Assembly: GCA_000063525.1 (NCBI GenBank)
Contig: CT978603.1
Coordinates: 2,103,105-2,167,104, forward strand
Source: Synechococcus sp. RCC307
GTDB taxonomy: Bacteria > Cyanobacteriota > Cyanobacteriia > PCC-6307 > Cyanobiaceae
Direction of reading: 5' to 3'
Length of the DNA: 64,000 bases
Shown: positions 1,846-50,199 of the stretch, piece by piece
Numbering within the stretch: the first letter of the stretch is position 1
Layout: each line of letters begins with the position of its first letter
Made by a program: the position numbers and the translations under genes
Notes under the pieces: generated by a model
What the model saw: the letters and a program-made list of their open reading frames with translations, nothing else
Databases searched by the model: none
Told to the model about the DNA's origin: nothing

Positions 1846-3300
1846 CTAAAGGAAACGCTTCAGGCGGATGGTGAAACGACTTCCCTCCCCCGGCACGGAG
1901 TGAACTGTGATTGATCCACCCATTCCATCGACAAGCATCTTGACGATGGAAAGGCCTAAACCAGAACTGCTCTGACCTTGGCGCAGCGTGACCCCTTCGG
2001 CCCGCTGAAAGCGCTCAAAAATGCGCTCAAGTTGGTCGTTGGCAATGCCCTGGCCTTGGTCGACAACCGTGACGGCTACTTCAAAGTTGTCAACCTGCAG
2101 ATCCAGAGCGATCGGACGGTCTGGTTCGGAGTACTTCACGGCATTCCCGATCAAGTTCTCCAGGCACTGAACCAGGCGATCGTGATCACCAATCGCCTCC
2201 ACCTCCTCAACCTGAGCAAGCTGATCAGTGATGGGGTTAGTGAAGGCTGCTCGAGCCAGCTTGAGGGATTGGAGGCAAGCTGCTTTGATCGCGAAAGGCT
2301 CCTGCAAAATCCGCAGCTGCCGGTTGTCGGCACGGCTGAGGTCCAGCAGATCGCTCAGCATGCGGTTGAGTCGCAAAGCTTCCTGATTGGCCACCGTTAG
2401 GGCATCACGGAACTGGGGCTTGAGATCATCGGCACGATTCAGAACCGATTGGATAAAGCCCGAAACAACGGTTAAGGGTGTTCGGAATTCATGGGAAATC
2501 GTTGAAGCAAATTGCTTTTGATTGGTGGCGGCCTGCTCCAACCGGCTCACCATGTGATTGAACTCACTAAGAATCGGCAACAGCTCAATGGGCTGCTTCT
2601 CTAACGAGATACTGGCACTATCAAGATCATCCAACTGAATACCGCTGAACTTGGTGCGCAAGTGCCGAATGGGACGAAAAATCAACAACAGGCAAGCCGC
2701 AAGCAACACCCACAAAGACACCATCAGCACCAACTCTGAAATGGTCTTCACGCGGTTGAGCGTGCCGTACAAAGCCATGTTGTAAATCGGCCGTACAAAG
2801 ATCAGTGATCCGGTCTGCTCTCCACCAGTCAGTTTCACCGACTTAATTGCCACGGCCTGGGGTGTGCCCCAACCAGAAATGGCGAATCGATCGGGTGAGT
2901 TTCGCACCAGCTTGGCGTAGCTCTCGAGTTGTTCCCTTGTGTAAATCCGTTGCGCTCCTTGGAGAGCCACCAAGCCGGCAGAACCATCAATCATCAGCAT
3001 CTTGTTGTCAAACAAAACCAGCCCCTGGAGCAACTTCTGGTAATCCTTCTGGCTACAGCAGTTGATGGCCTCTTCGGCTGTTAGGGAGTCCAGTTGGTTG
3101 TCAACATGATTCAACGGCCGGTCCAGATTGCGCGTGACGATCTGGTTGAGGGCACGGGATGTGTAGTGCCGCCAAAGCTGATTCGAGATCACGATGCTTC
3201 CCAAGGACTGAAAAACAATCAGCACCAACGCGGCATAGAAAAACCGGCGTGCAATCGACCAGTGTTGTTGGGGTCGACCGAAGGGCAGCAAAGGGCTCAT
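1846..3300 (-). CDS. Membrane sensor histidine kinase
   Basis: A 484-residue sensor kinase. Transmembrane segments at about residues 19-41 and 187-208 enclose a periplasmic domain of roughly 145 residues that I do not recognise. It is followed by a HAMP-like linker, a HisKA domain with His270 in the motif SHEFRTPL, and an HATPase domain with N box (NLIGNAVKYS), G1 (DQGQG) and G2 (GLGL, about 447). It lies 84 bases downstream of a PhnD-like binding protein gene on the same strand, and the regulator gene at 4488 is divergent from that pair. The likely circuit is binding protein, kinase, regulator. The signal is unknown. Confidence 0.93.
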   Translation of the reverse strand: MSPLLPFGRPQQHWSIARRFFYAALVLIVFQSLGSIVISNQLWRHYTSRALNQIVTRNLDRPLNHVDNQLDSLTAEEAINCCSQKDYQKLLQGLVLFDNKMLMIDGSAGLVALQGAQRIYTREQLESYAKLVRNSPDRFAISGWGTPQAVAIKSVKLTGGEQTGSLIFVRPIYNMALYGTLNRVKTISELVLMVSLWVLLAACLLLIFRPIRHLRTKFSGIQLDDLDSASISLEKQPIELLPILSEFNHMVSRLEQAATNQKQFASTISHEFRTPLTVVSGFIQSVLNRADDLKPQFRDALTVANQEALRLNRMLSDLLDLSRADNRQLRILQEPFAIKAACLQSLKLARAAFTNPITDQLAQVEEVEAIGDHDRLVQCLENLIGNAVKYSEPDRPIALDLQVDNFEVAVTVVDQGQGIANDQLERIFERFQRAEGVTLRQGQSSSGLGLSIVKMLVDGMGGSITVHSVPGEGSRFTIRLKRFL

Positions 3301-3384
3301 GGATTCAGACCTTCATCCTGATCTTTGAGCAGTGGAATCCCCCTCGAGAGGCTGGTGATCTTCTGGTGAAATTCGGGTGAATGC

Positions 3385-4419
3385 TCATCCAGCGGGAGCG
3401 TCAATATCGAGACAGGACTCGCGGCCACTGAGTTCTGAGCTCAATTCGCTAATGCGCCGGTTCTGCTCGAGATAGACATCATCAGCCGGCAGATCAAAAC
3501 CTGCGACCCCCATCACCTTCAGCAGCTCACCACTGCCTGAACCCGAAGACAAGTCCATTGCCGTCAAGGCTGACTGGATCGCCTTCAGGGCCTGATCGCG
3601 CTGCGGTGAGGAGTTACCTTCGGAAACAAGAACTGAGTAGTTGCGCTTCGGCTCGCTCAACCAAGCCACCTCGACATCAGCCTGCGCCGAGGGGGAAACC
3701 AGGCGCAGCGGGTCTTCAGCCTGACCTGGCATGAATGCGAAGTCATAGTCGCGGCTACTGGCGAAATAATCGGCTCGGTGACCATGGTGTGGTTCATAGG
3801 CGCATGATTTCAAGTCGCTGAGAGCCACCCCTTGATCTTTCATCTCAAGCAGTGGAGTCAAGAAAGATGAGCCCGAGCTTCTTGAGCCAAAAAGAACCCG
3901 CTTCCTCTTCAGCGATCGCAGGGGATTCTTCTCCTTGAGAGATTGCTTGAGAGCCGAACTGGCCTGTTTACTCACTAGCAAAACGTTGACAAACGATGGC
4001 TTCTCGACAGCCAGGGGCTGAATCAAGTTGTCTTTATCTTGCTCTTCCACTTGGGCCACACCAAGGGATCCAGCCCAAAGCAGATCAACCTTCCCAGAGA
4101 GGAGCAGTTGATGGCTGTGCGCATAATTAATTGCCGGAACGTATTCAACATCTATTTCACCAGACTTCTCTAGATAATCCTCGAGTGCTTTCATCTTCCG
4201 ATTCATTTTTTCTTGCTGGTAGTAAGGCTCTTCAGTAATACGAATCACCACCTTTCCATCCCCTGCCCCTGCCTGAGGCGGCTGAATTGAGCCTGCCTGA
4301 GGCTCACAGCCCAACAAAAGTCCTGCCAGTAATGAAGCGGCGCTCAGCGATGCCGTCTGCTGAAACGTCACCCACCTTCCGCCTGAGCCCATCAACCTAG
4401 CCAAGCCCTTAAGAGACAA
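3385..4419 (-). CDS. PhnD-like periplasmic substrate-binding lipoprotein
   Basis: A 344-residue protein of the phosphate/phosphonate-binding (PhnD) superfamily. The N-terminal hydrophobic stretch ends in the lipobox LLLGC (Cys38), so it is probably a membrane-anchored lipoprotein. Family features include the early beta strand IRITEEPYY and the segment LLSGKVDLLWAG. No ABC permease or ATPase gene is next to it. Instead its neighbours are a histidine kinase (downstream, same strand) and a response regulator (divergent, 68 bases away). This suggests a role as a ligand receptor feeding the kinase rather than in transport. The ligand cannot be read from the sequence. Confidence 0.85.
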   Translation of the reverse strand: MSLKGLARLMGSGGRWVTFQQTASLSAASLLAGLLLGCEPQAGSIQPPQAGAGDGKVVIRITEEPYYQQEKMNRKMKALEDYLEKSGEIDVEYVPAINYAHSHQLLLSGKVDLLWAGSLGVAQVEEQDKDNLIQPLAVEKPSFVNVLLVSKQASSALKQSLKEKNPLRSLKRKRVLFGSRSSGSSFLTPLLEMKDQGVALSDLKSCAYEPHHGHRADYFASSRDYDFAFMPGQAEDPLRLVSPSAQADVEVAWLSEPKRNYSVLVSEGNSSPQRDQALKAIQSALTAMDLSSGSGSGELLKVMGVAGFDLPADDVYLEQNRRISELSSELSGRESCLDIDAPAG

Positions 4420-4487: not shown

Positions 4488-5177
4488 ATGAATCCTGCTG
4501 ACCAATCAATCCTGATCGCAGATGATGAAGCCAATATTTTGATGCTCTTGGAGATGGAGCTTCAAGCCGAAGGCTTTTCCACCATCGGCTGCGGCGACGG
4601 GGCCAAAGCCCTGGCTCAAATCAGGGAATCGGCTCCAGCAATTGCGCTGTTGGATTGGAATATGCCGATCATTACGGGGCTCGATGTCTGCCGCAGGCTG
4701 CGTGACACCGGCAATCGCATTCCGGTGATCATGATCACGGCCCGCGATGAAATGGATGACCGCGTCGCTGCCCTTGAGGCTGGCGCTGATGACTTCATCT
4801 CCAAACCCTTCAACATCCGTGAGGTCTTGGCGCGAGTCAAAGCTCTCTTGCGGCGCAGCACGGCGATCAGCCCGGATCAACTGAACTTTGGTGATCTGCA
4901 CCTCAATGGTGCTGAGCGGCGCTGCAGCTACGGGGGCCAGGAGCTCACCCTCACGGTGCGCGAATTTGATCTGCTGGAATGCTTTCTGCGCAACCCGCGG
5001 CAAGCCCTAAGCCGCACCCAACTGATCCAAAACGTCTGGGGTGAGGACTACTTCGGCGACGACAACGTGGTCGATGTGTATGTGCGCTACCTGAGGCGCA
5101 AGCTTGAAGAGGTCAAGCCCGACCGCATCATCCAGACCATCCGCGGCATCGGCTTTGCCCTGCGCGTTGACGAGTGA
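4488..5177 (+). CDS. OmpR/PhoB-family response regulator
   Basis: A 229-residue two-domain regulator. The receiver domain (about 7-120) has the acidic pair Asp12-Asp13, the phosphoacceptor Asp56 in LLDWNMP, and Lys106 in SKPF. The C-terminal winged helix (about 130-227) carries the typical TVREFDLLECFLRNP and VDVYVRYLRRKLE segments. It is divergent from the PhnD-like gene, which is followed by the histidine kinase, so it is the natural partner of that kinase. A hairpin terminator follows at 5274. The target promoters are not identifiable; the shared 68-bp divergent region is a candidate. Confidence 0.95.
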   Translation: MNPADQSILIADDEANILMLLEMELQAEGFSTIGCGDGAKALAQIRESAPAIALLDWNMPIITGLDVCRRLRDTGNRIPVIMITARDEMDDRVAALEAGADDFISKPFNIREVLARVKALLRRSTAISPDQLNFGDLHLNGAERRCSYGGQELTLTVREFDLLECFLRNPRQALSRTQLIQNVWGEDYFGDDNVVDVYVRYLRRKLEEVKPDRIIQTIRGIGFALRVDE

Positions 5178-10604: not shown

Positions 10605-11048
10605 CTAACGCCAGGGAATCGCCACCAACACATCCAGTTGCTGCCAGTTGCCCGGATCAGCCAGCACCAGCTCAGTGAGCTGGACCTGCTCGAGAGCAGC
10701 TCGCACATCAGCTTCAGCCAAAGGCCGCGCTGGGCCCAGCGGCATCACCAGCACCTGGGCTTCAGCCGGATCCGCCATCACTTTGAGATCGAGATCGCCG
10801 AGTTCGCGCTCAAAAAACAAACGCCGCAAACGCCCGGTCAACACCGGTCCCAAGGCATGGGCAAAGGCTTCCAATTCCTGCTGCTGCACGCCCGCGCCGC
10901 ACTGCAGCGCCAGCCAGATCAAAAACTTGGCCCAGCTTTCACGGGTCCACAGAGGCTCAAACTCCTCGCGCTGATGGCGCACCAATTCCTGCACCGCAAA
11001 GTGCAGCAATGCCCCCTGCAAATCGTTGTTGGACTGCGCTTCTGCCAC
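10605..11048 (-). CDS. Conserved hypothetical protein (soluble, 147 aa)
   Basis: A small soluble protein beginning with GTG. It is rich in Leu and Gln, with Trp residues in a helical N-terminal half (FEPLWTRESWAKFLIWLALQ) and a C-terminal half with alternating beta-like segments (AQVLVMPLG, LTELVLADPGNWQQLDVLVAIPW). No catalytic motif or membrane segment is seen. It is divergent from the LuxR-type gene with 56 bases between starts. The function is unknown. Confidence 0.65.
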   Translation of the reverse strand: MAEAQSNNDLQGALLHFAVQELVRHQREEFEPLWTRESWAKFLIWLALQCGAGVQQQELEAFAHALGPVLTGRLRRLFFERELGDLDLKVMADPAEAQVLVMPLGPARPLAEADVRAALEQVQLTELVLADPGNWQQLDVLVAIPWR

Positions 11049-11104
11049 TGGCTAACCGCACCACAATCCATCTCTCCTACCAGCAGATCAGACGAGCGCT
11101 GGCC

Positions 11105-11782
11105 ATGGACTGCACCACCCAACTGGGGATGCTGCGGGAACGGCGCCAGAGGGGGCAAGCCCTCCTCGCAGGCCAGCGGGTGGTGCTCTGCAGCCAAAGC
11201 TGGCCGCTATTGGTCAGCCAATCCACAGCGCTGCAGGGAGGCGCCGATGTGGTGGCGGCCTGCACCACCGAAGCGGAAGCCCGCCGGCACGTGCAGCAAC
11301 GCCGCCCGCACCTGCTGATCAGCCAAGACCAGCTGCAACAGGGATCCGGGCTCAGCCTGGTGAGCCACTGCAAGCAGATGCAACCGAGTTTGCAGACGCT
11401 GTTGATCGTCAGCCGGCCGCAGCACTTCCCTTGGCGGCAAATGCTGAGCTTGGGCGTGGATGCTGCCTGCAGCAGCGAGCAATTGGGCCGTGGCGTGCTG
11501 TTGCAGGCCTTGGAGCACCTGCAAGAAGACGGCACCTGCTTCATCGATCCAGCCTTGAAACGGGTGAATGCCCAGCGCCATCCGCACCTATCGCCAAGGC
11601 AACAGCAGGTGCTTGAGGGCCTACAAAGCCAGCACTCCCTGGCTGATCTAGCCCAGGAGCTGGGGGTGGCCCACAGCACCTTGAAGGGGTATGTGCGGGA
11701 GCTCTACGACAAGTTGGAGGTGCCCAGCCGGCACCTCGCTGTGCGCAAAGGCCAGCAGCTGGGCCTGCTGCAGGCAGACTGA
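11105..11782 (+). CDS. LuxR/NarL-type DNA-binding regulator with atypical receiver
   Basis: A 225-residue protein if it starts at the ATG of MDCTTQLGML; an upstream in-frame start at 11009 would overlap the divergent gene. The C-terminus is a LuxR helix-turn-helix: LSPRQQQVLEGL, then DLAQELGVAHSTLKGYVRELYDKLEV. The N-terminal half resembles a response-regulator receiver in secondary structure. The usual phosphoacceptor region reads HLLISQDQL, so the Asp is missing or shifted by one. It may respond without phosphorylation. The target genes are unknown. Confidence 0.8.
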   Translation: MDCTTQLGMLRERRQRGQALLAGQRVVLCSQSWPLLVSQSTALQGGADVVAACTTEAEARRHVQQRRPHLLISQDQLQQGSGLSLVSHCKQMQPSLQTLLIVSRPQHFPWRQMLSLGVDAACSSEQLGRGVLLQALEHLQEDGTCFIDPALKRVNAQRHPHLSPRQQQVLEGLQSQHSLADLAQELGVAHSTLKGYVRELYDKLEVPSRHLAVRKGQQLGLLQAD

Positions 11783-12787: not shown

Positions 12788-12951
12788 AGCGTCTTGGCAA
12801 AGCCCTCTTGACGCTAATAAGCGCAGAGAAAGCCGTCAGCAAAAGGGCTCACCAGAAACGCACCAGAACTCCTATCCAGACCCCCCAGAAGCACTACGAG
12901 AAATCCAAAAACCAAAGGAGAGGCTGCGGTTGTTGAGAACACAAACAACCG

Positions 12952-15900
12952 ATGACACCTACCTACACCAAACTGCAAATCGAAGCAGGTGGCGAAACCG
13001 AACTGCTGGAGCAAACCGGCGACCAGACGATGGTCGCCATGCAAGGCAAGACAGACTTTGCTATCCGCAATCAAGACGGAACAGCCAGCACCGCAGTCGA
13101 CCACAAATGGCACATGATCAGTGCTGAGCAAGTTGGCGAAAGCGGAAGTGTCATTTGGCAAAACGCTGAGACCGGAGCATTCCGCGAAACCAAATACAAC
13201 ATCGACAAGACCCAAAAAAATTGGACACAAAGCGGAGAAGCTCAAGAACTCACGACTAGTGAGCTCTACGCGCGGGAAGGCCAACACAAGACTGACCTCA
13301 ATGGTGATGGCTTTCAGAGCTCAAGCGAAGTCTTGCTGAAAGGCCCTGGCACTCAACAGCAAGGTTCATCTGAAATCATGCTGGAAGGCGATGGCCTCAT
13401 CAACAGCGCAAACAAGGTTGTTGGCCAATGGAAAGCAGACCGCAACACTGAATACTCGATCGAGGGAAAGGATAAAGCGCTATTTGCCATTGATAACAAT
13501 GGCAAAGTGACCTTCACCGGGGATGCATTTGCCTCAGACCCAAAAACCGCAACTGGTCCAACAGCCTATGAATTCACAGTCAAGGCCACCGATAAATCAA
13601 CGAATCAGAGTGTGAGCCAAACGGTCAAACTTCGACAAAGGCATGTCATCGAAGTAACCAGCAATGCTGGAGACACAAGCAAAGGCTCTTTTGGGTGGGC
13701 CGTGCAGCAGGCCAATCAGCTAGGGGCTAAAAACATTGCCTCCGAGATTCGCTTCAAAGAAAGCATGACAATTGAAAGCAAGAATGGATACCATCTCACG
13801 CATGGCGACGTCAAAATCAATAGTTATAACTCCAAAAATGTCTCCATTAAACGCACAGGCAATGGCTCAGCCTTCACCATCGGAGAATACGAATATGCAA
13901 ACAAACACGATGCTAATAAACAACCAGACCTTCAGGTAGAGGCCTCAAATATCAATATATTTAATACAACCGCCAAAGGCCAAGACGCTGCAAAAAATGG
14001 CGGCGGCGGCGGCGGATACGGGACAGGAGCGGGAGTACTTCATTACAACGGACACCTGACTTGGAGCAACAGTGTCGTCCAAGGGAATAGGGTCGTAGCT
14101 GGACATGGAGCAGAGATTGGCTCTGAGGGGAAAGGTGGCCGACTAAAAGTAGTGGGATTTGGCCGCACCACCCACGTGATGCACTATGAAGCCGAGCGAG
14201 GCGATCCTGGCCTTAGGGGAGGAGGACTAAATGATCGCAATCATAGTTTTGGAAACGGGAAAGTTGAGGGTGGCGCGCCAGGGGAAAAAGACCCCTATTT
14301 CTTTGGTTCAAACTGGAAAGGTCACCATGGAAAAAATGGCTCTAATGCACCGAATAGCGCTGGGCTAGGTGAAGGCGGCATTGGACCTGGAGCTGCTGGG
14401 GGCGGAGAGTACAGCCGCGCCAAAGACGTATTCAGCAAGGGCACTAAAGGGAACAGTGGAAAACCAGGAAAAGGCTCAAAGGCAGGCTACGGCGGAGGAC
14501 AGTCAGTAAACGGGAATGGTCAGATTGATGATTCGGATACAAGGGGATGGGGCGGCACGGCCGACGCAAAAAAAGGAGGACGCGGATCTGCGCAAGGCGC
14601 ATTCATGTCTTCATTAGCGCATAAAAATGACAAAAACTCGGTAACAATTAGGACAACTGATGCCCTAGGGAACAAAGCAGAGTCCTCAACTACAGCCGGC
14701 AAAACGAATAACATCCACAGCAGATATCTTGAAATCAAAATCGATAACTACCGGCAACATAAAAGCCATAGAACACCTGATATGCAGCGAGAGACAGTTC
14801 AAGCCGGCACATACAATACCGATCAAAGCGTGAACAAAACCAACCCATTTAATAACTCAGCTACATTCACTCAAGCACAAGACAAAGGGGCTACAGAGAT
14901 CACAGTGAGGTCAAACTCTTTTGTGGTTAAAGAGGATGAGGCCAACATCGTTGGGCAAACCATTGAACTTGATCCGGAAAAATCTCATGTCATCTTTTCA
15001 GGGATGCAAATCAACGACAAAAATACAGTCACGAGTGAAATTCAAAATTGGCAACAATGGAGAGATGGGATTTCAGGAATTATGCAGAAAGTCTATTCTG
15101 TGAAGACAGAGGATGCGATCCGAAATAGCAGAAAAGGATTTATAGAAACTTGGGGTTCCATAGCAATCCAAGCAGCTGGTCAGGCTGGCGCTAAAACAGG
15201 TCCAGCAAGTCTAATCTTAAATGCAGGAAAAGGGATCGTGAGTGAGCTAAAAGAAACAGCACGCATCGAGAAAGAGCTCAAAGAGAGAGAGGCAACTATC
15301 CAAGAACACAAGCGGGTAGAGAGCCACTTTGTGGAAGCGCTGAAAACAAATCCCATTCAGGTCACTGATGTAAGAACGCGCCCTCTTCACAACAATTTCC
15401 GCCTTGGCACTCACACGATCGAGTTCCAACCAGGACTTGATCCCTTGCTGAAATGGGAAGGCGTAAAAAATGGGCAGGCAATTATATCTGTCAACAATAG
15501 AGATTTTAACAATAGAACAGCAGACAATAAGGCTAAGCAGTTTTCGCTCTTCAAGCTAACAAAAGAACAGACAAAAGAGATGGAGAACATCGAGGATCAG
15601 AGCGCCTATCTCAATAGTTTCATTCAATTCAGGCAAGAAGCTGGCAATGGCTTTATCTCCGCAAGAATGGGAACCCAAACGAAATGGCTATTCGTTAAAA
15701 ACAATGCTCAAGATCCACAAACTGGAAACAGCAATGATCGAGTGGCAATTCAAAGAGATTACGGTGCAGGCTTGACTGACAAAACGAACTTGGTAGTTGA
15801 CACTTTTCAAGGCAATGATGTGATTCAAGGCGATCGAGGCAATAGCACAATCAATGCAGGGCGAGGGAATGACTACATCCAGCCCGGACTAGGGAAAGAT

Positions 15901-16806
15901 ATTGTCAAAGGGGGCGAAGGCATTGACACAGTCAGCTATGCCAATATCGAGCAAGCACTAAAGGCAAGGGTTAAGAACGGGAAAATCACTGTCAATTTTA
16001 AAAATGCAGCTGCAAAAAATACCACCATGGATGACGAGATCACAGGAGTAGAAAAATTTGTCTTCGGGAAGAATGCCGATGTTGATTTTGCAGGGCTAGC
16101 GCCTGCAGTGAAATACTCAACAACTGACCCAACAAGAACAACAAACAATCAAGTCACCAGGACAATCACCTTCCAGGAAGGCTCCACAATCAAAGGAGCA
16201 GAAGGAGATGAGAAATTCATCATTAACTTTGAGACCACAAAGGATTCAGCAACCAATCCCAATTCAATCCAAAAGGTGACGGTAGATGGGAGAGGGGGAA
16301 GAAACCAACTGGCGATTGCTGGCCTTGATTCGTTTATAGAGCAAGGGTATGAAGTCATCAATGATTCAAATTCCAAGGAAATTAAAATCAAAAAAGGAGA
16401 AACTGAACATGACATTGTTGATTACGACAATATTATGGGCAGCCCGAAAGTTGTCGACCAGAACAACCAACCCTTAAAAGTAAAAACCCTGCTTTCAAAT
16501 ACCGCAGCAATGGATATCGATGCTGAGGCTGCTGACCCACTAATCAATTATGGAGGCTTAAAAGAACTATCAACCATCAAACCAAGCGAAATGTTTGGCA
16601 GCGATCAACTGATCCTGCAAAACGGAGATAGCTCATTCAACGAATCAGTTGCCAATCTAGAGTTCAACCCAATCATTCAGGGCATGAGCGCAACTCAGGA
16701 TCCCATCAACATGATCCTGAGCGGCACAAGCAACAGCCTTGAAAATGATTTAAACAAACAACAGCAGCGTGACCCTCTGACCCAAGAACGCATCGATAGC
16801 TTCTAA
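12952..16806 (+). CDS. Large Gly-rich secreted protein with RTX-type repeats
   Basis: A 1284-residue protein with no Sec signal peptide. Visible parts in order: a Trp-containing N-terminal module with an EF-hand-like TDLNGDGFQ (about 105-113); a cadherin-like segment (about 150-225, ending EFTVKATDKSTNQSVSQ); a beta-helix-like region (235-345); a very Gly/Asn-rich stretch (about 348-550, with a run of six Gly); a helical, charged stretch (about 735-805); RTX calcium-binding nonapeptides (about 952-985, FQGNDVIQGDRGN, GRGNDYIQPGLGKD); and a beta-rich tail. RTX proteins usually leave by type I secretion and act at the cell surface. No secretion genes are adjacent. Base composition is clearly A+T-richer than flanking genes, consistent with accessory DNA. 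Confidence 0.85.
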   Translation: MTPTYTKLQIEAGGETELLEQTGDQTMVAMQGKTDFAIRNQDGTASTAVDHKWHMISAEQVGESGSVIWQNAETGAFRETKYNIDKTQKNWTQSGEAQELTTSELYAREGQHKTDLNGDGFQSSSEVLLKGPGTQQQGSSEIMLEGDGLINSANKVVGQWKADRNTEYSIEGKDKALFAIDNNGKVTFTGDAFASDPKTATGPTAYEFTVKATDKSTNQSVSQTVKLRQRHVIEVTSNAGDTSKGSFGWAVQQANQLGAKNIASEIRFKESMTIESKNGYHLTHGDVKINSYNSKNVSIKRTGNGSAFTIGEYEYANKHDANKQPDLQVEASNINIFNTTAKGQDAAKNGGGGGGYGTGAGVLHYNGHLTWSNSVVQGNRVVAGHGAEIGSEGKGGRLKVVGFGRTTHVMHYEAERGDPGLRGGGLNDRNHSFGNGKVEGGAPGEKDPYFFGSNWKGHHGKNGSNAPNSAGLGEGGIGPGAAGGGEYSRAKDVFSKGTKGNSGKPGKGSKAGYGGGQSVNGNGQIDDSDTRGWGGTADAKKGGRGSAQGAFMSSLAHKNDKNSVTIRTTDALGNKAESSTTAGKTNNIHSRYLEIKIDNYRQHKSHRTPDMQRETVQAGTYNTDQSVNKTNPFNNSATFTQAQDKGATEITVRSNSFVVKEDEANIVGQTIELDPEKSHVIFSGMQINDKNTVTSEIQNWQQWRDGISGIMQKVYSVKTEDAIRNSRKGFIETWGSIAIQAAGQAGAKTGPASLILNAGKGIVSELKETARIEKELKEREATIQEHKRVESHFVEALKTNPIQVTDVRTRPLHNNFRLGTHTIEFQPGLDPLLKWEGVKNGQAIISVNNRDFNNRTADNKAKQFSLFKLTKEQTKEMENIEDQSAYLNSFIQFRQEAGNGFISARMGTQTKWLFVKNNAQDPQTGNSNDRVAIQRDYGAGLTDKTNLVVDTFQGNDVIQGDRGNSTINAGRGNDYIQPGLGKDIVKGGEGIDTVSYANIEQALKARVKNGKITVNFKNAAAKNTTMDDEITGVEKFVFGKNADVDFAGLAPAVKYSTTDPTRTTNNQVTRTITFQEGSTIKGAEGDEKFIINFETTKDSATNPNSIQKVTVDGRGGRNQLAIAGLDSFIEQGYEVINDSNSKEIKIKKGETEHDIVDYDNIMGSPKVVDQNNQPLKVKTLLSNTAAMDIDAEAADPLINYGGLKELSTIKPSEMFGSDQLILQNGDSSFNESVANLEFNPIIQGMSATQDPINMILSGTSNSLENDLNKQQQRDPLTQERIDSF

Positions 16807-17935: not shown

Positions 17936-18075
17936 GGGTCGATAGAGCACCTAGATCGACCTTCGCTCCGGCAAGACCGCCAAAGTGGGAAACAGGCCAT
18001 GCATTGACTGAAGATTGCCTGAAACCGCAGTGACGGATTGCTTTTAGAACCAACCAGGGTCTTCATCCCAAAACA

Positions 18076-18102
18076 CGGACCCTGCTTCGGCAGGGGCTTT
18101 TT
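18076..18102 (+). terminator. Orphan terminator at the head of the cassette array
   Basis: Perfect stem CCCTGC/GCAGGG around TTCG, then GC and five T. It has the same form as the terminators that close each downstream unit, yet no plus-strand ORF precedes it. The 17951-18075 stretch shows no gene, which suggests that a former first unit has been lost or decayed. Confidence 0.7.
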
Positions 18103-18113
18103 CATACCTAAAA

Positions 18114-18245
18114 CCCAGTGCTGACAGAGTCACCTGCTCTTCACCAGAACTGTTCTGACGCCTGACCAGAGGGTGACCAGGGGCTCACAAAACCAGCGGA
18201 GATGGTGCAGGTGTCCGGGAGAGATCCCACAACTGATTCAATCCA
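18114..18245 (+). repeat. Cassette leader repeat, copy 1
   Basis: The first of five ~130-nt leaders that share almost all bases from CCCAGTGCTGAC to just before the start codon. Shared blocks: GTCACCTG ... GGGTGACC (an inverted repeat of six or seven bases), CTTCACCAGAACTGTTCTGAC between its arms, ACAAAACCAGCGGAGATGGTGC, and the hairpin GGGA-GAGA-TCCC about 20 bases before the ATG. It precedes the ORF at 18246. Confidence 0.9.
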
Positions 18246-18470
18246 ATGAAGAAGCTCTTTGCTTTCGCTGTCGTTGCTGCACTTGGAGCTGGCACTGCTC
18301 TGCCAGTATCTGCCGGTACCGCAACAGCGCAGTCCATTTGGAATTCAAATCAAGCTGCTAGCCGCGCTCGTCAGCGGGTCCCTGCAGGTGCAGAAGTGAC
18401 TGATCGGCATTGCTCTTCGATTGACAATGGGAGGAACATTATTTGGACATGCAAGGTGACTTGGAAATAA
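18246..18470 (+). CDS. Cassette 1: small exported protein (74 aa)
   Basis: It has a typical Sec signal peptide (MKKLFAFAVVAALGAGTALPVSAG) and a mature part of about 50 residues with two Cys (RHCSSIDNG and WTCKVTW) that may form a disulfide. I do not recognise the family. Its start is fixed by the leader repeat, which ends at this ATG in a way shared with copies 2, 4 and 5. A terminator follows at 18505. Confidence 0.75.
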   Translation: MKKLFAFAVVAALGAGTALPVSAGTATAQSIWNSNQAASRARQRVPAGAEVTDRHCSSIDNGRNIIWTCKVTWK

Positions 18471-18504
18471 TCACAACTGTCTTGAAGGATTCCATCTACA
18501 TAAA

Positions 18505-18529
18505 GCCCCTGCTTCGACGGGGGCTTTTT
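18505..18529 (+). terminator. Terminator of cassette 1
   Basis: GCCCC/GGGGC stem around TGCTTCGACG, then five T. It is one of the near-identical terminators of the array and sits 35 bases after the stop codon. Confidence 0.85.
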
Positions 18530-18540
18530 ACTGCCCAAAT

Positions 18541-18671
18541 CCCAGCGCTGCCTTGGTCACCTGCTTTTCACCAGAACTATTCCGGCGGCTGACCAGAGGG
18601 TGACCAGAGCCTCCAAAAGTCAACGGTGATGGTGCAGGTGTTCGGGAGAGATCCCACAACCGACTCAATCC
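18541..18671 (+). repeat. Cassette leader repeat, copy 2
   Basis: Same layout as copy 1, with a complete GGTCACC ... GGTGACC inverted repeat, the inner ACCAGAACT block followed by ATTCC instead of GTTCT, and the GGGA-GAGA-TCCC hairpin. The two bases before that hairpin differ from copy 1 (TC for CC), while the flanking TGT/ACA pair is kept. Confidence 0.9.
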
Positions 18672-18887
18672 ATGGCCCTCACCGACAAAATCCTCACTGT
18701 TTTTGGTGGTTTCTTTGTTGTTCTTGGAGCTGTTGCCGTCAGCGCAGCACCCATCACTCCAACTCGCTTTAACCCTGCCTATCAGGTCAGAGCCGATCGT
18801 TGGCACCAAGACCACTACACACGGTTTCATCAGCAATACAACGTGGATGGTCCTGCTTCTGAGCGCTGGAATCAAAACCGCTTCTAA
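18672..18887 (+). CDS. Cassette 2: small membrane or exported protein (71 aa)
   Basis: The N-terminal hydrophobic segment (MALTDKILTVFGGFFVVLGAVAVSA) is either a signal peptide or an anchor. The mature part is rich in Arg, His, Gln and aromatic residues (WHQDHYTRFHQQYN). The first 13 residues closely resemble those of the cassette 5 protein (MTLYDNILTVFAG), while the rest does not, so the two share a head with different tails. Function unknown. Confidence 0.7.
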   Translation: MALTDKILTVFGGFFVVLGAVAVSAAPITPTRFNPAYQVRADRWHQDHYTRFHQQYNVDGPASERWNQNRF

Positions 18888-18911
18888 GCCGCTCAAAGGA
18901 CAACAGTCACG

Positions 18912-18936
18912 GCCCCTGCTTTAGCGGGGGCTTTTT
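18912..18936 (+). terminator. Terminator of cassette 2
   Basis: GCCCCTGC paired with GCGGGGGC, short TTTA loop, then five T, 24 bases after the stop codon. Confidence 0.85.
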
Positions 18937-18947
18937 CATGCTCAAAA

Positions 18948-19071
18948 CCCAGTGCTGACGGGGTCACCTGCCCTTCACCAGAACTGTTCTGACGCCTGAC
19001 CAGAGGGTGACCAGTGCCTCACAAAACCAGCGGAGATGGTGAGTTCATCAGAGAACCAAGGGGACCAAGCC
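18948..19071 (+). repeat. Cassette leader repeat, copy 3 (3' part replaced)
   Basis: Matches copy 1 almost base for base through ACAAAACCAGCGGAGATGGT, then departs. The GCAGGTGTCCGGGAGAGATCCC hairpin block is missing and an unrelated stretch with AAGGGGACC leads to the ATG. The GGTCACC/GGTGACC arms are intact. Confidence 0.85.
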
Positions 19072-19212
19072 ATGGGCGCCTTCATCTACGACACCAACGG
19101 AATGCTTCTCTTCTCAGGGCTCAACAAAGCTGCTGCCCTGGCCTACGCCAACTTGTTTGAACTAGCCCAATTCACCTTGGTCATCAGAGAGCCCAGAAAT
19201 CAAGGTCACTGA
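19072..19212 (+). CDS. Cassette 3: 46-residue protein
   Basis: A short ORF reading MGAFIYDTNGMLLFSGLN and ending EPRNQGH. It has no signal peptide and is mostly helical and hydrophobic in the middle (KAAALAYANLFELAQFTLVI). It lies exactly between leader copy 3 and a terminator, which is the main reason to accept it. AGGGGACC upstream of the ATG could act as a ribosome binding site, unlike the other units. Family unknown. Confidence 0.5.
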   Translation: MGAFIYDTNGMLLFSGLNKAAALAYANLFELAQFTLVIREPRNQGH

Positions 19213-19230
19213 ACCGATCGCTAATTCACG

Positions 19231-19255
19231 GCCCCTGCTTCGGCGGGGGCTTTTT
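19231..19255 (+). terminator. Terminator of cassette 3
   Basis: GCCCCTGC/GCGGGGGC stem-loop with five T, 18 bases after the stop codon, nearly identical to the terminators of cassettes 1 and 2. Confidence 0.85.
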
Positions 19256-19266
19256 CATGCTCAAAA

Positions 19267-19398
19267 CCCAGTGCTGACACAGTCACCTGCTCTTCACCAG
19301 AACTATTCCGACGGTTGACCAGAGGGTGACCAAAACCTCACAAAGCCAACGGAGATGGTGCAGGTGTCCGGGAGAGATCCCACAACCGAATCAATCCA
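19267..19398 (+). repeat. Cassette leader repeat, copy 4
   Basis: A full-length copy. The inverted-repeat arms read AGTCACC/GGTGACC, the inner block is ACCAGAACTATTCCGACGG, and the GGGA-GAGA-TCCC hairpin is present. It ends directly at the ATG of the cupin gene. Confidence 0.9.
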
Positions 19399-19914
19399 AT
19401 GCCCCGCTATCAAAAGACTGTCGCTGCTGCTTTCAGCGGAGTCGCTGTCTTGTTTGCTCCAGCCCTCGCCATTGCAACTCTCGTCACTGCACCGGTGCCT
19501 GCTCAAGGGGATCAGCAAGACCATGGCACTAAGCCTTGGGTTGTGAATATCGAAGAGCTCACAACCAACAACCAAAACTTCCGAACCACCTGGTGGACAG
19601 GGAAACAGTTGCAGATGACTGTGATGTCAATTCAGCCAGGAGAGGACATTGGGCTGGAAGTCCATCAAAAGGGTGATCAATTCATCCGGGTGGAAGAGGG
19701 AACAGCTCGCGTGCAAATGGGCACGAGCAAAACAAACCTGAGTTACGACAAAACGGTCGGAGATGACTGGGCAATGTTCATCCCAGAGGGCTATTGGCAC
19801 AACATCTCCAACGCAGGAAATGAAGAGCTCAAGGTGTATGTGCTTTATGCCCCGCCAGAGCATCCCGCTGGCACGATCCATCCAACGAAGGCCAGTGAGT
19901 CATCGCAGCCTTGA
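19399..19914 (+). CDS. Cassette 4: exported cupin-domain protein (171 aa)
   Basis: An N-terminal signal-like segment (about 1-35, AAAFSGVAVLFAPALAIA, probable cut near PVPAQ) precedes a single cupin domain: SIQPGEDIGLEVHQKGDQFIRV gives the first His/Glu motif and FIPEGYWHNISNAG the second His. These would hold a metal ion. The substrate is unknown. It is the largest and the only clearly assignable protein of the five cassettes, and is probably periplasmic. A terminator follows at 19938. Confidence 0.85.
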   Translation: MPRYQKTVAAAFSGVAVLFAPALAIATLVTAPVPAQGDQQDHGTKPWVVNIEELTTNNQNFRTTWWTGKQLQMTVMSIQPGEDIGLEVHQKGDQFIRVEEGTARVQMGTSKTNLSYDKTVGDDWAMFIPEGYWHNISNAGNEELKVYVLYAPPEHPAGTIHPTKASESSQP

Positions 19915-19937
19915 GCCAGCAGATGCTGTTGTGTATT

Positions 19938-19962
19938 GCCCCTGCAGATGCAGGGGCTTTTT
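19938..19962 (+). terminator. Terminator of cassette 4
   Basis: GCCCCTGC/GCAGGGGC stem with loop AGAT, then five T; it keeps the array pattern with compensating changes in the stem. Confidence 0.85.
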
Positions 19963-19973
19963 ACTGCCCAAAA

Positions 19974-20105
19974 CCCAGTGCTGACGCGGTCACCTGCTCT
20001 TCACCAGAACTGTTCTGACATCTGACCAGGGGGTGACCAAAGCCTCACAAAACCAGCGGTGATGGTGCAGGTGTCTGGGAGAGATCCCACAACCGACTGA
20101 AGACA
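19974..20105 (+). repeat. Cassette leader repeat, copy 5
   Basis: A full-length copy with GGTCACC/GGTGACC arms, inner ACCAGAACTGTTCTGAC and the GGGA-GAGA-TCCC hairpin. The bases before that hairpin are CT where other copies have CC or TC. It ends six bases after CGACTGA, at the ATG at 20106. Confidence 0.9.
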
Positions 20106-20297
20106 ATGACTCTCTACGACAACATCCTGACTGTTTTTGCCGGCGCCGCACTTGTCATTGCCGGAGCTACAGCTGCTTACACAGGCCCTCGATGCCCCGA
20201 CCCGCAAATATCAGAAAGCGGCCCGTGCCAAGGACAAATTTGTGGGTATGGCAATTGGGAAGTTTCAGATGCTGGCCCTTACAGCTACCGCTACTGA
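20106..20297 (+). CDS. Cassette 5: small exported or membrane protein (63 aa)
   Basis: The N-terminal hydrophobic segment (MTLYDNILTVFAGAALVIAG) resembles the head of the cassette 2 protein. The tail has three Cys (PRCPDPQ, GPCQGQICGYG) and ends in SYRY, unlike cassette 2. Probably exported or anchored. Function unknown. The array ends here with a last terminator, and the tRNA-Val gene follows on the other strand. Confidence 0.7.
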   Translation: MTLYDNILTVFAGAALVIAGATAAYTGPRCPDPQISESGPCQGQICGYGNWEVSDAGPYSYRY

Positions 20298-20321
20298 CGT
20301 TTCAACCTCCAGGGCTGCCTG

Positions 20322-20347
20322 GCCCCTGCTACTGCGGGGGCTTTTTT
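20322..20347 (+). terminator. Terminator of cassette 5, end of array
   Basis: GCCCCTGC/GCGGGGGC-type stem around TACT, then six T. No further leader copy follows. Confidence 0.85.
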
Positions 20348-20382
20348 CATGGCTGCGCATTCAATCGCAGCGGTTTTGACCA

Positions 20383-20454
20383 TGCCCGGTGCCGGGTTCG
20401 AACCAGCGACATCCTCTTTGTAAGAGAGGCGCTCTACCGCTGAGCTAACCGGGC
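20383..20454 (-). tRNA. tRNA-Val (anticodon UAC)
   Basis: Read on the minus strand, a 72-base cloverleaf: acceptor stem GCCCGGT/ACCGGGC with discriminator A, D arm with GCTCAGCGGTAGAGC, anticodon arm CCTCT-CTTACAA-AGAGG giving anticodon TAC, and T arm GGTTCGAACCC. No CCA is encoded. It sits at the boundary between the cassette array and the housekeeping stretch. Confidence 0.97.
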
Positions 20455-48490: not shown

Positions 48491-50199
48491 TGCCGTATCG
48501 GATTGATCGTCGGACCTATGCCGAGACCTATGGCCCCACCACAGGCGACCGGGTTCGGCTCGCCGATACCGAGCTGATCCTCGAAGTCGAGAAGGACTAC
48601 ACCGTCTATGGCGATGAAGTGAAGTTTGGCGGCGGCAAGGTCATCCGTGATGGCATGGGCCAAGGCCAGACCAGCCGCGCTGCGGGTGCCGTCGACACGG
48701 TGATTACCAACGCCCTGATCCTGGATTGGTGGGGCATCGTCAAAGCCGATGTGGGCCTCAAAGACGGCCGCATCTGCGCCATCGGCAAAGCGGGCAATCC
48801 CGACATCAGCGATGGGGTGACCATCCCCATCGGACCTGGAACCGAAGCCATTGCCGGTGAGGGGCACATCCTCACGGCCGGCGGCATCGACACCCACATC
48901 CACTTCATTTGCCCGCAGCAGATCGAAACGGCGATCGCCAGTGGTGTCACCACGCTGCTGGGGGGTGGCACCGGACCAGCCACGGGCACCAACGCCACCA
49001 CCTGCACGCCAGGGGCGTTTCACATCAGCCGCATGCTGCAGGCAGCCGATGGGTTGCCGGTGAATCTGGGCTTTTTCGGCAAGGGCAATGCGAGCACCCC
49101 TGAAGCCCTCGATGAGCAGGTGCGTGCCGGTGCCTGCGGCCTCAAATTGCATGAGGACTGGGGCACCACCCCAGCAGCGATCGATTGCTGTTTAGGCGTG
49201 GCCGATCGCTTCGATGTGCAGGTCTGCATCCACACCGACACCCTTAATGAGGCGGGGTTTGTGGAAGACACCATCGCCGCCATCAAAGGCCGCACGATTC
49301 ACACCTTCCACACCGAAGGTGCTGGCGGCGGCCATGCCCCCGACATCATCCGCATCTGCGGTGAAACCAATGTGCTGCCCAGCAGCACCAATCCCACCAG
49401 GCCCTACACGCGCAACACGCTCGAGGAGCACCTCGACATGTTGATGGTGTGCCACCACCTGGATTCCTCGATTCCCGAGGACGTGGCCTTTGCTGAATCG
49501 CGGATTCGCCGCGAAACCATTGCCGCCGAAGACATCCTTCACGACCTGGGCGCTTTCAGCATCATTGCCAGCGACTCCCAGGCCATGGGACGCGTGGGTG
49601 AGGTGATCACCCGCACCTTCCAGACCGCCCACAAGATGAAGGTGCAACGGGGGGTGCTCGAGGGCGACAACAGCCGCAACGACAACACGCGCCTGAAGCG
49701 CTACATCGCCAAGGTGACGATCAACCCCGCCATCGCCCATGGCCTCGACCATCAAGTGGGCTCGGTGGAAGTGGGCAAGTTGGCGGATCTGGTGCTGTGG
49801 AAGCCGGGATTCTTTGGCGTCAAACCCGAGCTGGTGCTCAAGGGCGGCTCAATTGCCTGGGCTCAGATGGGCGATGCCAATGCCTCGATTCCCACGCCTG
49901 GCCCAGTGCATGGCCGACCGATGTTCGCCAGCTTCGGCGGGGCCATGGCCCCCTCGTGCCTCACCTTCCTCAGCCAAGCGGGCCTCGATGCCGGCGTTCC
50001 TGAAGCCTTAGGGCTGCGCACGCCGTGCGTGCCGGTGCAGAACACCCGCGGCATCGGCAAAGCGCAGATGAAAAACAACATCGCCCTACCAAAGGTGGAG
50101 GTGGATCCCGAGACCTATGAAGTGTTTGCCGACGGCGAACTGCTCACCTGCGAGCCGGCGGAGGTGCTGCCCATGGCCCAGCGCTACTTCTTGCTTTAA
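48490..50199 (+). CDS. ureC: Urease alpha (catalytic) subunit
   Basis: The 569-residue catalytic subunit; hydrolyses urea to ammonia and carbamate using two nickel ions. Nickel ligands: GIDTHIHFI (HxH), the carbamylated Lys in [16 protein letters not shown], and histidines in [12 protein letters not shown] and [17 protein letters not shown]. The active-site flap MVCHHLD is present. Substrate comes from UrtABCDE, agmatinase and the guanidine hydrolase. Its stop overlaps the convergent gene at 50196. Confidence 0.99.

What the first reader, a model, noticed from the sequence alone, without database searches (positions are those of the whole stretch)
18114..20105. Common leader looks like a structured, possibly regulatory RNA
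In all copies GTCACC and GGTGAC form inverted-repeat arms around a conserved ACCAGAACT block. In four copies a GGGA-GAGA-TCCC hairpin with a GNRA loop sits about 20 bases before the ATG, flanked by TGT/ACA that can pair while the two bases between them change (CC, TC, CC, CT). No normal Shine-Dalgarno sequence is near the ATG: the only purine run is inside the hairpin. This fits a translational switch or protein-binding site.
Basis: partly seen in the sequence, partly recalled or inferred. Interest (0 to 1): 0.58.

Follow-up and report, generated by a model that had tools for sequence, protein, structure and literature searches.

The report
Shared promoter of a secreted-protein regulon
The repeated 'leader' is mostly not a structured RNA but a shared gene switch: six evenly spaced docking sites on the DNA, probably for a control protein encoded nearby, followed by a short hairpin at the start of the message, and in related ocean cyanobacteria the same switch stands in front of many bacteriocin-like peptide genes and of secreted proteins.

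Summary
The observed letters are real, but most of the 'leader' is promoter DNA. Each copy is an ungapped 77-nt block of six 11-bp units (consensus TNACCAG-N4; the third is degenerate) and a -10-like hexamer (xAxxxT in 45 of 45 copies). The GTCACC/GGTGAC 'stem' pairs fully only in the five window copies (5 of 45), without compensation, and is explained by the repeat unit. The short GGGA-GAGA-TCCC hairpin is better supported as RNA: a stem recurs at that position in 32 of 42 distinct leaders (shuffles 3.0±1.7), with different sequences. Formal covariation is absent or not significant.

The likely regulator lies in the window: a PhoB/OmpR-type response regulator (4488-5177) beside a histidine kinase and a PhnD-like binding protein. 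Its ortholog occurs in 13 of 14 curated array genomes among 400 and is nearly confined to them. Exact unit pairs number 131 in 15 regulator-positive genomes versus 19 in 34 negative ones. Phased units also precede the kinase gene in 6 of 10 genomes. Targets in relatives are Nif11 and double-glycine RiPP/bacteriocin precursors, RTX proteins and small secreted proteins. Binding, start sites, signal and direction of control are untested.

The parts
18080..18095 (+). intrinsic-terminator-like hairpin + T run before unit 1 (similar ones at 18504-18529, 18911-18936, 19230-19255, 19937-19962, and after the last gene 20321-20346)
   Evidence: isolates each leader from upstream transcription
18130..18195 (+). 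copy u1: six phased 11-bp units (TCACCTG, TCACCAG, GTTCTGA, TGACCAG, TGACCAG, TCACAAA)
18201..18206 (+). u1 predicted -10 element GATGGT; predicted start of transcription about 18212-18214 (inferred)
   Evidence: A at position 2 and T at position 6 in 45 of 45 copies
18217..18228 (+). u1 hairpin GGGA-GAGA-TCCC at the predicted 5' end of the mRNA
18246..18470 (+). u1 gene, 74 aa, signal-peptide-like N-terminus by eye, no Pfam family
   Evidence: relative under the same promoter in L052
18557..18633 (+). copy u2: six units and -10 (18628-18633); hairpin 18644-18655; gene 18672-18887 (71 aa)
18964..19040 (+). copy u3: six units and -10 (19035-19040); no GGGA hairpin; AAGGGG before the gene 19072-19212 (46 aa)
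19283..19359 (+). copy u4: six units and -10 (19354-19359); hairpin 19370-19381; gene 19399-19914 (171 aa, cupin)
19990..20066 (+). copy u5: six units and -10 (20061-20066); hairpin 20077-20088; gene 20106-20297 (63 aa)
12849..12925 (+). weak copy of the promoter (E = 0.0035 in the own-genus search) before the 1284-aa gene
12952..16806 (+). 1284-aa protein with an RTX repeat (PF00353) and W_rich_C (PF07483); relatives in G270, G294, G316 carry strong copies of the promoter
3348..3380 (-). three phased units TCACCCG-N4-TCACCAG-N4-TCACCAG directly upstream of the kinase gene (putative autoregulation)
   Evidence: 2-3 units in the same intergenic place in G070, G270, G294, G316, G276
1846..3300 (-). 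sensor histidine kinase (HisKA + HATPase_c)
3385..4419 (-). PhnD-like periplasmic binding protein (PF12974), no ABC transporter genes seen beside it; possible ligand sensor
4488..5177 (+). PhoB/OmpR-family response regulator (PF00072 + PF00486), proposed activator of the leaders

Best explanation
The common leader is a promoter cassette plus a short 5' untranslated region. Six head-to-tail 11-bp units (TNACCAG-N4) lie on one face of the helix and form a binding array for a PhoB/OmpR-type response regulator; a weak -10 (GATGGT or GATCTT) follows 16 nt after the start of the sixth unit. Transcription should begin about 6-8 nt further on, so the mRNA would carry a roughly 30-35 nt leader with a small hairpin at its 5' end. 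The regulator is most likely the one at 4488-5177, phosphorylated by the kinase at 1846-3300, perhaps with the PhnD-like protein as ligand sensor, and it probably also controls the kinase gene through the units at 3348-3380. The regulon consists of secreted products: small signal-peptide proteins and an RTX protein here; Nif11 and double-glycine RiPP/bacteriocin precursors and RTX proteins in relatives. Shown by computation: the repeat phase, the fixed geometry, the regulator-array co-occurrence and linkage, the target classes. Inferred: binding, activation, start site, signal, and the hairpin's job (most likely protecting the 5' end or setting translation without a Shine-Dalgarno).
For: 11-bp phase: z about 20 over 45 copies; G221 has six near-perfect units. 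-10: A2 and T6 in 45 of 45. A terminator-like hairpin lies before each window copy. Regulator: ortholog at 67-100% identity in 15 of 400 family genomes; 14 of these 400 have curated arrays (two spurious rows dropped) and 13 have both (Fisher p 1.7e-21; raw, uncurated counts 16, 17 and 13 of 400, p 1.5e-18). Exact pairs TNACCAG-N4-TNACCAG: 131 in 15 regulator-positive genomes (backward control 1) against 19 in 34 others (control 5). Linkage: phased units before the kinase gene in 6 of 10 genomes where kinase and binding protein were both found; arrays beside the regulator in G270, G294, G316, G276. PhoB itself is missing (no match at E<=1e-50) from array genomes G029 and G221, both 99% complete. 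Targets: 32 of 40 fetched sites have the full architecture and about 22 of these 32 a GG-leader peptide; Nif11 72 and 64 bits (cut-off 32.3), cerein-7B class 29.3 bits (cut-off 21.5); RTX 107 bits. Hairpin.
Against: No binding, expression or start-site data. WH7803 (G245) has at least two array promoters but no ortholog of the regulator. G331 has the regulator and no array found (63% complete); G318 has arrays by the model but no exact pair. The genomes are related, so the Fisher values overstate independence. The unit resembles the 11-bp boxes before a pstS-like gene of the same genome, so PhoB or another paralog could share the sites. Covariation of the hairpin is not demonstrated. The window's own small proteins other than the cupin hit no family, and none is a GG peptide.
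Confidence: 0.77

Rival explanations
1. One reading: a roughly 120-nt structured leader RNA, with a GTCACC/GGTGAC stem around ACCAGAACT and a hairpin near the ATG, that switches translation.
For: Arms and hairpin are present as letters in the window copies; a short hairpin recurs at a fixed place.
Against: Arms pair fully in 5 of 45 copies, uncompensated; an 11-bp direct repeat explains them; no Rfam match at E<=1; promoter-part windows fold no better than shuffles (mean z -0.1, -0.2, 0.1); copy 3 and L007 keep the array and lose the GGGA hairpin.
Confidence: 0.05
2. The array is an ordinary Pho box and the regulator is PhoB/SphR (gene at G000:709476, L061), so that these genes are phosphate-starvation genes.
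For: Same 11-bp phase; TAACCAG-TCTT-TAACTGC-GACT-TAACAGA upstream of a pstS-like gene; published cyanobacterial box CTTAACCT with 3-bp linker (PMC1906773, passages).
Against: PhoB is in 19 of 20 array-less genomes tested but not found (E<=1e-50) in array genomes G029 and G221, both 99% complete; drafts G316 and G326 have only a paralog-level match; the arrays follow the other regulator; the unit is TCACCAG/TGACCAG rather than TTAACC.
Confidence: 0.1
3. The units are a repetitive element that spread through these genomes and sits upstream of genes by accident or through mobility, without regulation.
For: Up to 26 exact pairs in one genome (G270), often with near-identical sequence; five tandem copies in the window.
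Against: Ungapped geometry with an invariant xAxxxT hexamer in all 45 copies; 32 of 40 fetched sites have the full architecture, 31 of them with an ORF of 35 aa or more starting within 300 nt; dependence on one regulator gene.
Confidence: 0.05
4. The regulator and arrays are as described, but the 5' hairpin has no RNA function: the G-run/C-run is an initially transcribed or DNA-level element.
For: No significant covariation; folding energies only slightly below shuffles (mean z -0.81 over 42); near-invariant sequence inside each class.
Against: Ten stem types at the same position, 32 of 42 against 3.0+-1.7 in shuffles, replicated at 23 of 28 other sites against 1.8+-1.2; paired lengthening GGGAA/TTCCC in three copies.
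Confidence: 0.25

Closest known systems
Pho box promoters (PhoB of E. coli, SphR of cyanobacteria)
   Same: Tandem 8-bp repeats with 3-bp linkers, i.e. an 11-bp phase, ending close upstream of the -10; regulator of the same family (PMC1906773 passages)
   Different: Six units of TNACCAG; a different regulator by co-occurrence; targets are secreted peptides and RTX proteins, not phosphate uptake
PhoP/RegX3 boxes of actinobacteria (recalled, not looked up)
   Same: 11-nt direct repeat units with a GTTCACC core
   Different: Distant phylum; regulator and targets unrelated; resemblance only
Periplasmic binding protein plus kinase sensors such as LuxPQ or HptRSA (recalled)
   Same: A stand-alone binding protein encoded beside a sensor kinase
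   Different: Ligand unknown here; no paper on such a system in Synechococcus in my listing
Nif11 and CCRG-2/double-glycine RiPP and bacteriocin precursors of cyanobacteria
   Same: Peptides under the variant promoter in G276 and G270 match TIGR03798 and TIGR03949 above cut-off
   Different: Described families of the target proteins; the shared promoter and the regulator are what is added here

Membership tests
Known structured RNA (Rfam 15) | match at gathering threshold, or at E<=1 in a focused search | tested here: not met
   no match in 18050-20350 (one search's only nearby hit is a tRNA at 20383-20454)
Structured RNA with conserved helices | compensatory changes in the proposed helices | tested here: not met
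   arms: none; GGGA hairpin: 0 two-sided changes in 17 sequences; variant hairpin: 3 cells, 67 of 500 shuffles as high
PhoB/OmpR-type response-regulator promoter | direct repeats at constant 11-bp phase | tested here: met
   lag-11 0.445 against 0.260+-0.009
PhoB/OmpR-type response-regulator promoter | array ends at a fixed distance before a -10 element | tested here: met
   unit 6 to -10 is 16 nt in both promoter classes and in G221; A2/T6 in 45 of 45
PhoB/OmpR-type response-regulator promoter | binding of the regulator and regulator-dependent transcription | not testable with these tools
   co-occurrence and linkage only
Pho regulon (PhoB/SphR) | controlled by PhoB; presence follows phoB | tested here: not met
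   PhoB not found at E<=1e-50 in array genomes G029 and G221 (99% complete); found in 19 of 20 array-less genomes
OmpR/PhoB-family response regulators (the gene at 4488-5177) | receiver plus winged-helix Trans_reg_C domain | tested here: met
   PF00072 and PF00486 over cut-off
PhoB equivalog (TIGR02154) for the gene at 4488-5177 | score over 296.2 bits | tested here: not met
   217.8 bits
RiPP/bacteriocin precursors as targets | Nif11 or GG-leader family model over cut-off | tested here: met
   in relatives only: TIGR03798 72 and 64 bits, TIGR03949 29.3 bits; four of the window's own small targets tested: no hit

The most novel reading that the evidence does not exclude
One undescribed two-component system, perhaps sensing a phosphorus compound or another small molecule through a PhnD-like protein, is the master switch of the exported peptide and RTX arsenal of a set of picocyanobacteria. 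Its promoter-plus-hairpin cassette behaves as a module that has been copied in front of unrelated genes, so that new secreted proteins enter the regulon by acquiring the cassette.
Probability: 0.45. Interest if true: 0.72.

Novelty: new member of a known kind. Interest (0 to 1): 0.58.

Why it matters
It names a candidate regulator and its exact binding array for bacteriocin-like peptides, Nif11 RiPP precursors and RTX proteins in picocyanobacteria, so that the question of when these abundant organisms release such peptides becomes testable by one deletion or one DNA-binding assay. It also corrects a plausible misreading: conserved inverted-repeat letters upstream of genes can be phased direct repeats for a DNA-binding protein rather than an RNA fold.

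Tried and rejected
RNA stem GTCACC/GGTGAC: rejected. Rfam: nothing. PhoB as regulator: disfavoured. Sigma-70 -35/-10 scan: no site in the leaders. Viral contigs with an exact pattern: 0 stretches. Genome contigs with the same pattern: 6 stretches, one of them (L074, Desulfonatronovibrio) unrelated. Paper searches: TCACCAG with Synechococcus, 21 papers, the 15 listed look unrelated by title; secreted peptides with a response regulator and kinase with PhnD: nothing on this system in the listings; all ten searches used. HptA/HptS gave nothing useful.

Rows dropped: G161 and G284 from the 16 array genomes (no phased units); L046-L048, L054, L056, L058, L060 as chance or misplaced; G070:C95 (cut by the contig end) and G029:C22 (no locus given). 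G134 and G164 (53-54% identity) were not counted as orthologs. Of 40 fetched pair sites, 8 failed the architecture rule (L159 and L191 look real; L170, L178, L187, L189, L193, L196 look like chance pairs). Of 23 regex GG hits I discount L171. In one search one row (L078) was first read at the wrong copy; corrected.
Full report
1. What is there. Five leader copies (75-90% identical to the first over 175 nt) each follow an intrinsic-terminator-like hairpin with a T run and precede five small genes of 46-171 aa, one a cupin. The own genome (2.22 Mb, one contig) has three further strong copies and a weak one at window 12849, before the 1284-aa RTX gene. By relatives this is a picocyanobacterium: two loci from a named Synechococcus MAG (SW22112_bin_11) match those of same-genus genome G070, and the WH7803 locus matches that of G245.

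2. The arms are not an RNA stem. I collected 45 copies (43 distinct cores) from genomes searched with a sequence-only model built from 14 copies. They align without a gap over 77 nt as six 11-mers: TCACCWG, TCACCAG, a degenerate third unit, TNACCAG, TNACCAG (main class) and TCACMAR. In a variant class unit 5 is lost and unit 6 and the -10 are both shifted by one base, so that the distance between them stays 16 nt. Lag-11 self-match is 0.445 against 0.260+-0.009 in 300 shuffle rounds. GTCACC/GGTGAC pair 6 of 6 in 5 of 45 copies (the window's own) and at least 5 of 6 in 7 of 45, never by compensation. G221 shows the design plainly, with six near-perfect TCACCAG-like units.

3. A -10 and a short leader. 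The hexamer after the array is xAxxxT in 45 of 45 copies: GATGGT 18, GATCTT 12, others 15, including AATAGT. No sigma-70 -35/-10 pair was found there, as expected of an activator-dependent promoter. L038 joins a variant promoter to the main-class hairpin without a gap. The start site (18212-18214 for u1) is inferred from the usual spacing, not measured.

4. The hairpin. A stem of at least 4 Watson-Crick pairs starting 3-8 nt after the estimated start occurs in 32 of 42 distinct leaders, against 3.0+-1.7 (maximum 8) in shuffles; 10 stem types are seen; at other places of the leader counts are 0-11 of about 43. At sites fetched later it is 23 of 28 against 1.8+-1.2. Against this: energies are only modestly below shuffles (mean z -0.81 over 42; promoter windows near 0; coding -0.30), and covariation is absent in the main class (0 two-sided changes in 17 rows) and not significant in the variant class (3 cells; 67 of 500 shuffles). 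The outer TGT/ACA pairs break in several copies without compensation. I read it as a 5'-terminal hairpin whose role (mRNA stability or translation without a Shine-Dalgarno) is unproven. Translation without a Shine-Dalgarno is considered likely in Prochlorococcus, possibly by ribosomal protein S1 (passages of PMC5607370).

5. The regulator. Nine Trans_reg_C proteins were found in the own genome; one lies in the window (4488-5177). Among 35 chosen genomes its ortholog (67% identity or more) is in 14 of 15 with arrays and 0 of 20 without; array-less G101 keeps a 67%-identical fragment with a stop. In the family draw of 400 (same handles, taken to be the same draw) arrays were found in 16, of which I drop two as spurious; the ortholog is in 15; both in 13 (Fisher 1.7e-21; raw, uncurated counts 1.5e-18). 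The exceptions: WH7803 has arrays and no ortholog; G221 has arrays that only the laxer search found; G331 (63% complete) has none found. Within genus g34, 10 of 31 genomes have both, one arrays only, one regulator only. Exact unit pairs: 131 in 15 positive genomes (backward control 1), 19 in 34 others (control 5). PhoB does not follow the arrays, although the pstS-like promoter of this genome has similar 11-bp boxes.

6. Linkage. Of 64 kb on both strands, the only stretches with three or more good phased units are the five leaders and 3348-3380 (-), directly before the kinase gene. Two to three units stand in the same binding-protein/kinase gap in G070, G270, G294, G316 and G276: 6 of 10 genomes in which both genes were found, the window's included. 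Beside the regulator, G270, G294, G316 and G276 carry an array before a 71-77 aa secreted-looking protein. In these 13 neighbourhoods plus the window, exact pairs number 16 with 0 in the reversed control.

7. Targets. Genes behind the arrays in relatives: RTX proteins (L017, PF00353 107 bits), relatives of the window's 1284-aa protein (L020-L022), and in G270, G276, G029 and G259 many short peptides. Of 40 fetched pair sites, 32 have the full architecture, and about 22 of these a double-glycine leader. Six such peptides were scanned: two match Nif11-leader RiPP precursors and one a class IIb bacteriocin family above cut-off; two match CCRG-2 and/or CTB models below cut-off (one of them also scores on another RiPP model below cut-off) and one matches nothing. 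The window's own small targets other than the cupin match nothing over cut-off.

8. Known or new. The kind (a phased response-regulator promoter) is known; this regulon, its regulator and its link to exported peptides appeared in none of my ten paper searches' listings, which cover only open-licence papers and were read mostly as titles and abstract starts.

Noticed in passing
L086 (G000:C1:1207614, pstS-like gene), upstream: TAACCAG-TCTT-TAACTGC-GACT-TAACAGA, three 11-bp phased boxes, a likely Pho box of this genome.
   Followed up: partly
L026/L070 (WH7803) and other variant-class leaders: AAGGAGT near the predicted 5' end is complementary to ACTCCTT shortly before the ATG, enclosing the GGGGG/CCCCC hairpin; seen by eye, could be an outer stem.
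   Followed up: no
G101:C1:351853-352305: A fragment 67% identical to the window regulator with a stop codon, in a genome without arrays: apparent joint loss.
   Followed up: no
window 48645-48931 (-): Rfam 5_ureB_sRNA at 130 bits; possibly only the conserved ureB coding sequence read in antisense.
   Followed up: no
window 11009-11782 (+): A LuxR-type HTH regulator lies just before the RTX gene at 12952.
   Followed up: no
WH7803 (G245): At least two array promoters but no ortholog of the regulator: a relict, or a different regulator.
   Followed up: partly
L012 / G070:C232: G070 also has a tandem run of leader copies, including an ortholog of the u3 gene with the array and without the GGGA hairpin.
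   Followed up: partly
G168:C29 (L083): A long CACT repeat tract sits between the variant promoter and a GG peptide gene.
   Followed up: no
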